Below, one piece after another: positions 11,229 through 29,135 of a stretch of DNA of 32,081 nt. Position 1 is the stretch's first letter. Each line of letters begins with the position of its first letter. This stretch comes from Clostridia bacterium. GTDB lineage: Bacteria; Bacillota; Clostridia; Oscillospirales; Acutalibacteraceae. Where the stretch lies: contig JAFRJB010000070.1 in NCBI GenBank assembly GCA_017432485.1, forward strand, positions 1 to 32,081, written 5' to 3'. The notes beneath the pieces are model-generated. The model searched no databases, was not told the DNA's origin, and was given only the letters and a program-made list of their open reading frames with translations. The translations under genes were made by a program, and so were the position numbers.

Positions 11229-11400
11229 TTTTGGCTGTCCGCCAGTCGGCAGACAGCCAAAGAACATCCAATCGGGTGCGGGTGTCCCGCCCGCCACATT
11301 TGCGCAGCAAATATATCATTCGCCGCAGGCGAATATCATTGTGCGAAGCACAATATCACTTGTGCAACGCACAAATATCACTGTGAGCATAGCGAACTTA
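11229..11400 (+). repeat. Tandem array of seven short hairpins in the tRNA-Pro leader
   Basis: Consecutive small palindromes fill the space between promoter and tRNA. They are: 11229-11262 (TTGGCTGTC arms, one mismatch); 11278-11290 (GCGGG-TGT-CCCGC); 11298-11312 (ATTTGC-GCA-GCAAAT); 11318-11334 (ATTCGCC-GCA-GGCGAAT); 11338-11354 (ATTGTGC-GAA-GCACAAT); 11358-11376 (ACTTGTGC-AAC-GCACAAAT, one C-A mismatch); and a weaker one at 11380-11399. The last five are separated by ATC or ATATC linkers. Arm sequences differ while loop size (3 nt) and linkers are kept, so structure rather than sequence seems conserved. Not a CRISPR, since there is no constant repeat. Confidence 0.75.
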
Positions 11401-11401
11401 T

Positions 11402-11477
11402 CGGGGTGTAGCGCAGTTGGTAGCGCGCTTGCTTTGGGAGCAAGATGTCGCAGGTTCAAATCCTGTCACTCCGACCA
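11402..11477 (+). tRNA. tRNA-Pro (anticodon TGG)
   Basis: A 76-nt cloverleaf: acceptor CGGGGTG pairs with CACTCCG (one G-U); D-arm GCGC/GCGC; anticodon stem CTTGC/GCAAG with loop TTTGGGA, giving UGG, which reads CCN proline codons; T-arm GCAGG-TTCAAAT-CCTGT; encoded 3' ACCA. The loop keeps U33. The transcript would carry an unusually long structured 5' leader. A terminator follows directly. Confidence 0.95.
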
Positions 11478-11506
11478 AAAATCCCGTATGAAAATGCGGG
11501 ATTTTT
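11477..11506 (+). terminator. Terminator of tRNA-Pro
   Basis: AAAAATCCCG and CGGGATTTTT form a 10-bp stem with a 10-nt loop ending in five T's, overlapping the last base of the tRNA. Confidence 0.8.
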
Positions 11507-11592
11507 ACTTCTTACCTATTCCTTCTTCACTCTTACTTAAAAAGTGCGGGATTTTTGGAAAGTAAGAAGTAAGAGTGAATAGTGAAGAAGTG
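11495..11592. repeat. Duplicated terminator half and pyrimidine/purine simple repeats
   Basis: TGCGGGATTTTT at 11495-11506 recurs at 11545-11556, flanking 38 nt rich in CTTCTTAC/CTTCACTC motifs. Complementary purine motifs (AAGTAAGAGTGAA type) follow at 11560-11592, so part of the region can fold back. It resembles a small insertion with a 12-bp target repeat, or simple-repeat expansion. Confidence 0.5.
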
Positions 11593-11613: not shown

Positions 11614-11964
11614 ATGGCAGAAAGTATTTTAATAGACAAATCAAAGACTTTTGCATTAGAAGTGATTCGTGCGTGCAAAGAGTTGCGTGCTTCAAAGTGC
11701 GAAGGCGCGTTAATCAGTCAGTTTTTGCGCTCGGGAACGAGCATTGGCGCAAATATTCGGGAGGCGTTTTTCGCTCACGGAAAAGCCGATTTTATTGCAA
11801 AGTTGCAAATTGCACTCAAAGAATGCTCCGAAACGGAGTATTGGTTAGAATTGGTTATTGAGAGCGGATATTACAGCGATAAGTCTATTTTAGATCATTG
11901 TATCGAAATTAAAAAGCTATTAATATCCTCCATTAACACAGCAAAGAAAAATCAGGAAAAATAA
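11614..11964 (+). CDS. Four-helix-bundle protein (S23/IVP/Avd-like), copy A
   Basis: A 116-residue protein of the four-helix-bundle family (TIGR02436 type), which includes proteins encoded in 23S rRNA intervening sequences and the Avd accessory protein of diversity-generating retroelements. The diagnostic core LRSGTSIGANIREAFFAH is followed by DFIAKLQIALKECSETEYWL, the family's helix 2-3 signature. The whole chain is helical, rich in Lys and Glu, without signal or membrane segments. GAAAGG lies 8 nt before the ATG. It sits 136 nt behind tRNA-Pro and is followed by a partial copy of that tRNA's 3' end. No rRNA and no reverse transcriptase lie near it. Members are thought to bind nucleic acid; its job here is unknown. 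A paralogue lies at 28674, also behind a tRNA. Confidence 0.88.
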   Translation: MAESILIDKSKTFALEVIRACKELRASKCEGALISQFLRSGTSIGANIREAFFAHGKADFIAKLQIALKECSETEYWLELVIESGYYSDKSILDHCIEIKKLLISSINTAKKNQEK

Positions 11965-11974
11965 ATCCGTTATT

Positions 11975-12048
11975 TCCGACCAAATAAAAAGTAGCCGAAC
12001 CAAGCGTTCGGCTACTTTTTATTAGTAAAACATACAGGATTTGAACCT
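11975..12048. repeat. Direct and inverted copies of the tRNA-Pro 3' end
   Basis: TCCGACCAAA at 11975-11984 is an exact copy of the tRNA 3' end at 11470-11479. ACAGGATTTGAACCT at 12034-12048 is the exact reverse complement of the tRNA T-arm at 11452-11466. Together with the tRNA they bracket the four-helix-bundle gene, as attachment-site duplications do at tRNA-integrated elements. Confidence 0.65.
11983..12023. terminator. Terminator of the four-helix-bundle gene A
   Basis: An 18-bp perfect stem (AATAAAAAGTAGCCGAAC with its complement), 5-nt loop, five T's in the right arm; it starts 18 nt after the stop codon. It can act in both directions. Confidence 0.85.
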
Positions 12049-12136
12049 CGGGGATGTCTGAGCGTAAAGAAAACAACCTATCAAAGCGGATGATGGATTT
12101 GATTTCATCCTCTTTATTCTCATTTTCAATTAACCG

Positions 12137-28175: not shown

Positions 28176-28252
28176 GGAGGTTTAGCTCAGCTGGTTAGAG
28201 CGCCTGCTCCACACGCAGGAGGTCACTGGTTCGAATCCAGCAATCTCCACCA
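28176..28252 (+). tRNA. tRNA-Val (anticodon CAC) with C at position 33
   Basis: A 77-nt cloverleaf with encoded CCA: acceptor GGAGGTT with AATCTCC (one G-U), D-arm GCTC/GAGC, anticodon stem CCTGC/GCAGG with loop TCCACAC, T-arm ACTGG-TTCGAAT-CCAGC. Positions 34-36 read CAC, which would decode GUG valine. Position 33 is C instead of the almost universal U, and the pair 49-65 is A-C. Either a variant functional tRNA or a decaying copy. Its last 20 nt are duplicated at 28404-28423. Confidence 0.85.
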
Positions 28253-28289
28253 TAAAAAGAGGACTTGCTTTGGCAAGTCCTCTTTTTAT
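28252..28289. terminator. Terminator of tRNA-Val
   Basis: ATAAAAAGAGGACTTGC and its full complement form a 17-bp stem with a 4-nt loop, starting at the last base of the tRNA. Beyond the stem, tRNA-tail-like sequence continues on both sides in opposite orientation. Confidence 0.85.
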
Positions 28290-28291
28290 GG

Positions 28292-28338
28292 GATTGCGTC
28301 AGGATTCGAACCGTAGTCCATCTCCCGGCGGTTCGCCT
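28292..28338 (-). repeat. Inverted tRNA-tail-like repeat, copy R1
   Basis: About 47 nt that recur at 29089-29135 with two mismatches. Read on the minus strand they contain GGTTCGAATCC, the T-arm sequence also present in tRNA-Val (28228-28238), followed by TGACGCAAT, like an acceptor 3' strand. R1 lies right behind the tRNA terminator in opposite orientation. Confidence 0.75.
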
Positions 28339-28403
28339 TGGCGGAGGCGGGAGGGACATACAAAACGCGGAGGCTTGCGAGGCAAGCGAACGAAGCGGAG
28401 CGT

Positions 28404-28423
28404 GAATCCAGCAATCTCCACCA
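28404..28423 (+). repeat. Exact 20-bp direct copy of the tRNA-Val 3' end
   Basis: GAATCCAGCAATCTCCACCA matches 28233-28252 exactly, at an offset of 171 bp. Again a terminator hairpin follows directly. This is the pattern of an attachment-site duplication after insertion at a tRNA 3' end. Confidence 0.85.
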
Positions 28424-28424
28424 G

Positions 28425-28454
28425 AAAAAACCGTTCCTCAAGGAACGGTTTTTT
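28425..28454. terminator. Terminator after the duplicated tRNA tail
   Basis: AAAAAACCGTTCC and GGAACGGTTTTTT form a 13-bp stem with loop TCAA. Confidence 0.8.
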
Positions 28455-28456
28455 CA

Positions 28457-28627
28457 ATGAAATAAATCCCTTGTGGGATTTATGAAGTATTCCTGTGGAA
28501 TATGAAGTAGCTGCGCTATGAAGTATGCTGTGCATATGACGGAGGGATTTATTTTACTTCATATTGCGGTAAAACCACAATACTTCATAATTCTTTAGAA
28601 TTACTTCATATTGCGTAGCAATATTTC
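28457..28627 (+). repeat. Tandem array of seven short hairpins before four-helix-bundle gene B
   Basis: The palindromes are: 28462-28483 (ATAAATCCC-TTGT-GGGATTTAT); 28488-28502 (TATTCC-TGT-GGAATA); 28508-28518 (TAGC-TGC-GCTA); 28524-28536 (TATGC-TGT-GCATA); 28563-28581 (ATTGCGGT with ACCACAAT, one mismatch); 28589-28602 (AATTC-TTTA-GAATT); and 28608-28624 (ATATTGC-GTA-GCAATAT). Linkers in the first half read ATGAAGT-like; in the second half they read ACTTCAT, the reverse complement. A GGGATTTATTTTACTTCAT segment (28544-28562) partly mirrors the opening ATGAAATAAATCCC, so the array as a whole has rough mirror symmetry. Not a CRISPR. Confidence 0.8.
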
Positions 28628-28635
28628 ATTATAAA

Positions 28636-28644
28636 TGGTATAAT
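28636..28644 (+). promoter_or_regulatory. Extended -10 promoter of four-helix-bundle gene B
   Basis: TGGTATAAT (TGnTATAAT type) 29 nt before the start at 28674. No good -35 is present; the last array hairpin occupies that position, so hairpin-binding proteins could interfere with it. Confidence 0.5.
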
Positions 28645-28673
28645 GATAAAAACCGGAAGAGGTGGTGTATGAA

Positions 28674-29033
28674 TTGAAAGAAAACAAACTTGCAGATTTA
28701 TCAATGGATTTTGCGGTTGAAGTATTAGAAATGACAGACGGAATAAAAGGGCATTATTCACTTGTCAATCAAATCGAACGTTCTGCAACCAGTATAGGCG
28801 CTAACATTCGTGAAGCGAACTATGCTCATGGCAAACCGGATTTCATAGCAAAACTACAAATCGCTTTGAAAGAATGTTACGAAACAGAGTATTGGTTGGA
28901 GTTATTTACAAGATCAAAAATTCTCGATGAAGCAAAGGCAAAGAATTTAACTGACAAGTGCGGCACTATTCGCAGAATACTGGTTGCTTCTATCAACACC
29001 ACAAAAGCCAATATGCAAAAACAAACTGATTAA
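28674..29033 (+). CDS. Four-helix-bundle protein (S23/IVP/Avd-like), copy B
   Basis: A 119-residue member of the same family as the protein at 11614. The core SATSIGANIREANYAHGK is followed by DFIAKLQIALKECYETEYWL, almost identical to copy A in helices 2-3, while the first and last helices differ and codons have diverged, so this is not a recent duplicate. The N-terminal helix reads KENKLADLSMDFAVEVLEM. I prefer the TTG start at 28674: GAGGTG ends 9 nt upstream, whereas the in-frame GTGs at 28662 and 28665 overlap that site. Context mirrors copy A: behind a tRNA, near a hairpin array, closed by a terminator and an inverted tRNA-tail-like repeat. Nucleic-acid binding is likely from the family; the actual role here is unknown. 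Confidence 0.88.
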   Translation: MKENKLADLSMDFAVEVLEMTDGIKGHYSLVNQIERSATSIGANIREANYAHGKPDFIAKLQIALKECYETEYWLELFTRSKILDEAKAKNLTDKCGTIRRILVASINTTKANMQKQTD

Positions 29034-29049
29034 AAATGTGAGCAGACAT

Positions 29050-29081
29050 AAAAAGAGACATCCGCAAGGGTGTCTCTTTTT
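29050..29081. terminator. Terminator of four-helix-bundle gene B
   Basis: AAAAAGAGACATCC pairs with GGGTGTCTCTTTTT around loop GCAA. It opens with ATAAAAAGAG, as the tRNA-Val terminator does. Confidence 0.88.
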
Positions 29082-29088
29082 CCGGTGA

Positions 29089-29135
29089 ATTGCGTCAGGA
29101 TTCGAACCGTAGTCCAGCTCGCGGCGGTTCGCCTT
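29089..29135 (-). repeat. Inverted tRNA-tail-like repeat, copy R2
   Basis: Second copy of the 28292-28338 repeat with two mismatches, containing GGATTCGAACC at 29098-29108 (T-arm in reverse). It ends 2 nt from the sleB stop codon, so the element edge abuts that gene. Confidence 0.75.

What the first reader, a model, noticed from the sequence alone, without database searches (positions are those of the whole stretch)
28176..29135. Compact tRNA-Val-anchored cassette: tail duplications, hairpin array and a four-helix-bundle gene
Seen: tRNA-Val, terminator, inverted tail-like repeat R1, an exact 20-bp direct copy of the tRNA 3' end, terminator, seven tandem hairpins, the four-helix-bundle gene, terminator, and R2, a second copy of R1. 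So tRNA-tail sequence recurs three times outside the tRNA, in both orientations, each beside a terminator. Known: S23/IVP proteins occur in 23S rRNA intervening sequences and Avd in diversity-generating retroelements; neither rRNA nor a reverse transcriptase is present here. Inference: a minimal mobile or RNA-guided element that targets tRNA 3' ends and carries only a four-helix-bundle protein and structured RNA.
Basis: partly seen in the sequence, partly recalled or inferred. Interest (0 to 1): 0.78.

Follow-up and report, generated by a model that had tools for sequence, protein, structure and literature searches.

The report
RNA-protein cassette hopping between tRNAs
Gut bacteria related to this one carry, just behind many of their transfer-RNA genes, a short cassette made of a hairpin array that is predicted to fold strongly and one small protein gene; closely similar cassettes sit behind different transfer RNAs, so it is likely a tiny mobile element of a kind not described before, and how it would move is untested.

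Summary
Pooled, 116 of 227 unique S23 (PF05635) four-helix-bundle genes have a same-strand tRNA or tmRNA within 1 kb upstream; in the second set 52 of 76, against 0 on the opposite strand upstream and 1 downstream. Between tRNA and gene lies a conserved array: terminator, arm A, its complement, linker-hairpin units, the complement of A again, hairpins with complementary linkers. Its long helix covaries, and G-U mispairs outnumber A-C, pointing to RNA. Cassettes 80-90% identical sit at different tRNAs, the match often ending at the S23 stop codon; tRNA type is nearly random on the S23 tree. The protein is under purifying selection. Gene-less arrays, including Rfam's unexplained Gut-1 RNA, are common behind tRNAs. 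The tail copies belong to a separate unit found with or without the gene. Best reading: a minimal mobile element of tRNA/tmRNA 3' ends, probably an S23-RNA particle. It encodes no known recombination enzyme, and reverse transcriptase does not track it. Movement is inferred, not seen.

The parts
28176..28252 (+). tRNA-Val(CAC), the gene behind which everything sits
   Evidence: ARAGORN, Rfam tRNA 61.1 bits
28250..28291 (+). terminator A
   Evidence: 19-nt perfect inverted repeat
28288..28423 (+). T-unit: inverted T-arm of this tRNA (R1), hairpin core, hairpin, direct copy of the tRNA tail (28404-28423); judged a separate element
28424..28455 (+). terminator B, directly before the array
   Evidence: 15-nt perfect inverted repeat
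28457..28629 (+). linker-hairpin array: arm A, A*, ATGAAGT-type linkers with hairpins, central A*, complementary linkers with hairpins
28639..28644 (+). TATAAT, candidate -10 element of the S23 gene
   Evidence: exact hexamer; also in 50 of 116 tRNA-adjacent loci
28662..29033 (+). S23 (PF05635/TIGR02436) four-helix-bundle gene; probable TTG start 28674
29050..29081 (+). terminator C, behind the cassette
29089..29135 (+). R2, a truncated T-unit without the tail copy
   Evidence: 96% identical to R1
11402..11477 (+). tRNA-Pro(TGG), site of a second S23 cassette
11478..11591 (+). terminator and tandem-heptamer type array of the second cassette (terminator arm repeated at 11546-11558)
   Evidence: read; positions; linker test gives only 4 copies here, below the threshold
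11614..11964 (+). second S23 gene
   Evidence: PF05635 match, ORF
11975..12048 (+). 8-nt tRNA-Pro tail copy, terminator, inverted T-arm (12034-12048) behind the second S23 gene
11308..11383 (-). Gut-1 RNA (RF01706), an array of the same kind, on the other side of tRNA-Pro
   Evidence: 71.4 bits, E 1.4e-12

Best explanation
The array and the S23 gene form one discrete cassette of about 0.6 kb that sits behind tRNA and tmRNA genes on their strand, recurs behind tRNAs of most amino acids in related gut Clostridia, and is likely a mobile element. Shown here: the position and orientation bias; the conserved, covarying fold with a strand bias towards RNA; closely similar cassettes at different tRNAs, the match often ending at the S23 stop codon; presence and absence among genomes of one genus; purifying selection on the protein; gene-less arrays at the same kind of site. 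Inferred: the array is transcribed by read-through from the tRNA; the S23 protein, predicted to be an S23/Avd-type ring subunit, binds that RNA; the particle directs insertion of the cassette just behind the terminator of a tRNA-like 3' end, with a host enzyme supplied in trans; gene-less arrays are satellites mobilised by S23 from elsewhere. Untested: transcription, binding, movement and the identity of the enzyme.
For: Same-strand tRNA within 1 kb upstream: 66 of 158 hits, against 1, 5 and 2 for the other side/strand combinations; second set 52 of 76 against 0, 1 and 0. Linker-complement arrays in 90 of 115 intervals at 6 or more copies, 17 of 2300 shuffles. A:A* helix 98.2% paired, 40 double-change cells, shuffles 15.1. 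G-U 120 against A-C 50. Cassette pairs at different tRNAs, 80-90% identical. tRNA isotype: 83 changes, shuffled 85.7. dN/dS median 0.07 in 113 pairs. Gut-1 and S23 co-occur: 42 of 54 against 11 of 66 genomes. 20 of 30 Gut-1 loci within 600 nt of a tRNA/tmRNA. Gene absent from the same site in sister genomes.
Against: No movement was seen and no clean empty site with a target duplication was found. Over all 939 different-tRNA pairs the ends of similarity are spread, and a few matches run 300-400 nt past the stop codon. At 90% or more protein identity 9 of 42 pairs share the isotype, above the 7.2% expected, so part is plain inheritance. Ten of 115 intervals, the window's own tRNA-Pro one among them, miss the linker threshold. 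In one search the number of pairs with a double change (6, shuffled 4.6, 49 of 500) and of further pair types (9, shuffled 11.0) do not exceed shuffles. One S23 (L047) lies on the strand opposite to its tRNA. The TATAAT lies behind the array, so the array need not be in the S23 transcript.
Confidence: 0.6

Rival explanations
1. The array and S23 are a host regulatory or RNA-processing module attached to tRNA transcription units (trailer processing, read-through control), spread by homologous exchange and not by mobility of its own.
For: Strong purifying selection on S23; fixed position and strand; conserved RNA fold.
Against: tRNA type is nearly random on the S23 tree; at tRNA-Ser(GGA) the cassette is in 1 of the 5 genus genomes whose site was printed; arrays and genes also occur behind protein genes; gene-less arrays outnumber genes in G000, 30 to 9.
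Confidence: 0.15
2. The cassettes are passengers or scars of ordinary integrative elements that use tRNA 3' ends as attachment sites, and the tail copies are their attachment sites.
For: Integrative-element-like DNA stands at the tRNA-Pro and tRNA-Ser sites of some genus genomes; tail copies behind S23 at tRNA-Pro and a partial one at L128.
Against: The gene stands at a median of 265 nt behind the tRNA in a fixed plan; for most printed loci no tail copy follows the gene (23 loci read by eye); T-units occur without S23. I did not search for integrase genes near the loci.
Confidence: 0.12
3. The cassette is a retroelement whose reverse transcriptase is supplied in trans; S23 acts like the Avd subunit of diversity-generating retroelements, and host palindromes at some junctions are fold-back copies.
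For: Fold match to Avd chains, TM 0.71-0.79; PHROG Avd profile E 0.0037 for one of two S23 tested; palindromes of host sequence at L032, L096, L036; RNA strand bias.
Against: Avd matches have Foldseek E 0.07 and higher. PF00078 reverse transcriptase is in 18 of 54 S23 genomes and 19 of 66 others, p = 0.69. Palindromes were seen in single loci, not counted.
Confidence: 0.1

Closest known systems
23S rRNA intervening sequences encoding S23p, e.g. the Coxiella IVS (PMC4990558, passages read)
   Same: S23-family gene; selfish-looking small element inside or beside a stable RNA gene; strong RNA structure; spread unexplained
   Different: Here behind tRNA/tmRNA genes, not inside 23S rRNA; a linker-hairpin array in front of the gene in place of terminal repeats around it; RNase III excision not known
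Gut-1 RNA, RF01706 (PMC2864571, passages read)
   Same: Gut-1 matches lie in arrays in front of S23 at 7 S23 loci scanned and behind tRNAs
   Different: Published as a free-standing RNA from environmental sequences only, without gene or tRNA context in the passages read; the window's own array 28457-28629 is not a Gut-1 match at the gathering score
Avd protein of diversity-generating retroelements (PDB 4dwl, 8ub7)
   Same: Four-helix fold, TM 0.71-0.79
   Different: No reverse transcriptase association; sequence match weak
Heptamer repeats of Beggiatoaceae and cyanobacteria (PMC4679880, passages read)
   Same: Intergenic 7-nt repeats of unknown origin
   Different: That text has 0 occurrences of S23 or helix bundle; 169 direct and one indirect set, not paired arrays with hairpins

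Membership tests
S23 / 23S_rRNA_IVP protein family (PF05635) | profile match over the curated cut-off and S23 fold | tested here: met
   92.1 bits, cut-off 33.8; AlphaFold2 model matches 2rld, TM 0.83
23S rRNA intervening sequence | lies inside a 23S rRNA gene | tested here: not met
   Rfam finds only two tRNAs and Gut-1 in the window
23S rRNA intervening sequence | excised from the transcript by RNase III | not testable with these tools
   needs RNA work
Diversity-generating retroelement | reverse transcriptase partner | tested here: not met
   no association over 120 genomes, 18 of 54 against 19 of 66
Diversity-generating retroelement | template and variable repeats | not tested
   no search made
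Gut-1 RNA (RF01706) | match at the gathering score | tested here: inconclusive
   window array 28457-28629: no match; array at 11308-11383: match; arrays at 7 of 18 S23 loci scanned: match
Known anti-phage defence system | PADLOC model match | tested here: not met
   0 families for 2 proteins at E up to 1
Mobile element | observed transposition or clean empty/occupied pair with target duplication | tested here: inconclusive
   presence/absence in sister genomes but no clean junction pair

The most novel reading that the evidence does not exclude
A class of mobile RNA-protein elements without any recombination enzyme of their own: an S23 ring and a switch-like array RNA together recognise the 3' ends of tRNA-like transcripts and place new copies just behind their terminators; Gut-1 RNA and other gene-less arrays are their satellites, and 23S rRNA intervening sequences are an older branch of the same way of life.
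Probability: 0.33. Interest if true: 0.93.

Novelty: categorically new. Interest (0 to 1): 0.82.

Why it matters
The role of S23 proteins and the spread of 23S rRNA intervening sequences are described as unclear (PMC4990558, passages), and Gut-1 RNA was published without a host organism (PMC2864571, passages). This ties both to one compact, abundant, tRNA-linked cassette with a defined fold and roughly mapped ends, so that binding, transcription and movement become directly testable.

Tried and rejected
Reverse transcriptase in trans as a requirement: tested over 120 genomes, no association. Plain heptamer counting: the commonest 7-mer occurs a median of 5 times near S23 and 3 times in far flanks (148 and 105 scored); too coarse, replaced by the linker-complement test. 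Defence function: no PADLOC match. Chance placement near tRNA: rejected by side and strand bias. Tail copies as ends of the S23 cassette: rejected by G001 and by T-units at other tRNAs. Fold-back host palindromes as a general junction: seen in single loci only, not counted.

Literature: nine searches listed no paper that links S23 or Gut-1 to tRNA 3' ends. The library holds open-licence PMC papers only, lists were capped (15 of 7,977), and of most listed papers I saw only title and start of abstract.

Rows dropped before counts: one search kept 152 of 158 hits and scored 148; one search left out 5 of 81 hits already seen; one search aligned 22 of 43 arrays of that type, chosen for similar length; one search parsed 33 of 43; one search examined 15 of the 21 rows (R2 and five tail-only rows left out); one search used 112 of 116; only pairs with at least 72% protein identity and usable dS, many of them near saturation. 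The loci were the best 80 of at least 566, picked by similarity to an alignment made only of tRNA-adjacent proteins, so describes that clade and not all S23. Gut-1 counts are lower bounds (35 candidates scored per genome). Genomes are mostly incomplete assemblies.

Full report
What is in the window. A second S23 gene in the same window, 11614-11964, stands behind tRNA-Pro. The genome has nine PF05635 matches, of which four have a tRNA in the fetched stretch; one of these four (L007) is on the opposite strand.

Recurrence. S23 loci came from 7 genomes of the genus, from 120 of the family (54 with a match), and from 80 named loci of public genomes, mostly herbivore-gut Clostridia and Oscillospiraceae assemblies. 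In the first set 66 of 158 hits, fragments and a few duplicates included, have a same-strand tRNA within 1 kb upstream, against 1 (upstream, opposite), 5 (downstream, same) and 2 (downstream, opposite). In the second set it is 52 of 76 new hits, with 0 opposite-strand cases out to 2.5 kb on either side and 1 downstream same-strand case. Pooled and made unique: 116 of 227. Isotypes seen are Leu, Glu, Ser, Arg, Gly, Val, Cys, Gln, Pro, Tyr, Trp, Thr, Ala, Lys, Met and Asn, and tmRNA; three more loci stand behind tmRNA by Rfam. On a tree of 141 all 62 tRNA-adjacent rows are in one group of 105 (support 89, below the starred level); 0 of the 36 rows outside it are tRNA-adjacent.

Array. Between tRNA and gene (median 265 nt over 115 intervals) the printed loci share a plan: terminator; arm A; A*; linker-hairpin units; a second A*; hairpins with the complementary linker; then the gene (23 loci). 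Linkers differ between clades but agree between the halves of one array. In one type the units are bare tandem heptamers and the terminator serves as A. At 6 or more linker copies with both orientations, 90 of 115 intervals score against 17 of 2300 shuffles; left copies all precede right copies in 85 of the 105 intervals that reach 5. Own A fits the central A* at 6 of 6 in 19 of 33 arrays against 3.7% with other loci. In 22 aligned arrays the A:A* helix is 98.2% paired with 40 double-change cells against 15.1 in shuffles, and at most 62.1% paired when slid; two of the five measures (pairs with a double change, further pair types) do not exceed shuffles. RNAalifold finds 29 pairs, 21 with compensatory changes. 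Single mispairs inside hairpins are G-U 120 and A-C 50, which a DNA cruciform alone would not explain; the loci are related, so p = 8e-8 is too small. An exact TATAAT precedes the gene in 50 of 116 loci, 8.1 expected.

One unit at many places. Cassettes 80-90% identical stand at different tRNAs, for example L124 (Glu) and L246 (Arg) at 85.9%, L229 (Trp) and L234 (Val) at 86.3%; there the match begins in the tRNA tail or behind the terminator and ends within a few bases of the S23 stop codon. Other pairs end earlier or, rarely, run on for 300-400 nt. tRNA isotype needs 83 changes on a tree of 112 against 85.7 for shuffled labels (36 of 200 as low); at 90% or more identity 33 of 42 pairs differ in isotype, though sharing (9 of 42) is above chance. 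dN/dS is 0.07 in the median and 0.17 at most over 113 pairs. Sister genomes lack the gene at some sites: tRNA-Val in G001, tRNA-Pro in G001, G002, G003 and G005, tRNA-Ser(GGA) in G001, G002, G004 and G006.

Arrays without the gene. Gut-1 RNA matches arrays of this kind at 7 of 18 S23 loci scanned. It is in 42 of 54 S23 genomes and 11 of 66 others, odds ratio 17.5. G000 has 30 Gut-1 matches against 9 S23. Of 30 Gut-1 loci 20 lie within 600 nt of a tRNA or tmRNA, 13 of them 30-40 nt behind one on its strand; 4 have S23 within 600 nt. One terminator-array unit has two full and two cut-off copies, 98-100% identical, in G000; the cut-off ones lie at contig ends.

Tail copies. They belong to a T-unit: inverted T-arm, hairpin core, hairpin, direct tail. 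Of 15 rows examined in the genus 14 follow a tRNA (Val, Arg, Pro); 11 of the 14 have a direct copy of 20-22 nt of that tRNA's own tail, 1 has 13 nt, 2 have none; all 14 have an inverted match of 11 nt or more. Several rows are two units at one site. G001 has two tandem T-units and the array at tRNA-Val without S23.

Protein. AlphaFold2 gives four helices, pLDDT 92. The best PDB matches are S23 proteins 2rld (TM 0.83) and 2gsc; Avd chains follow at TM 0.71-0.79 with E of 0.07 and higher, behind an unrelated plant inhibitor at TM 0.56. By sequence 2rld has E 7e-38 and 2gsc 2e-4. Reverse transcriptase does not track S23 (18 of 54 against 19 of 66 genomes, p 0.69).

Judgement. A discrete cassette, its place, its fold and its repeated change of tRNA partner are supported by data. 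A self-directed RNA-protein mechanism is the inference I hold most likely; the enzyme that would move it is unknown.

Noticed in passing
L063, L064, L066 (tRNA-Pro sites of G001, G002, G005): The first 19 nt of tRNA-Pro plus about 190 nt of GC-rich sequence stand directly before the intact tRNA-Pro, as if another element inserts in the tRNA's 5' part; no Rfam match in L063 and L064.
   Followed up: no
L056, between the second tRNA-Val tail copy and the array (G001): An insert of about 270 bp splits the terminator and duplicates its hairpin; similar sequence stands before the tRNA. Looks like a small non-coding insertion element.
   Followed up: no
L009, L319, L177, window 12034-12110: A second type of unit with inverted tRNA tail and another core (around ...TGAGCGT...AGCGAAGAGCGGTGA...) at tRNA-Lys, tRNA-Ser, near tmRNA and tRNA-Pro.
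   Followed up: no
L001, L002, L003, L004: S23 genes away from tRNAs are flanked on both sides by tandem heptamers in inverted orientation, read by eye.
   Followed up: partly
L176, L203: Arrays behind tRNAs are followed by a promoter-like TATAAT and another small open frame in the place of S23.
   Followed up: no
L096, L036, L032: The first hairpin of the cassette is a palindrome that includes the end of the host gene (guaA stop region, a protein gene end, a tRNA-Ser tail).
   Followed up: partly
L009:832-1036 (-): 6S RNA gene about 0.5 kb from the S23 copy beside tRNA-Lys.
   Followed up: no
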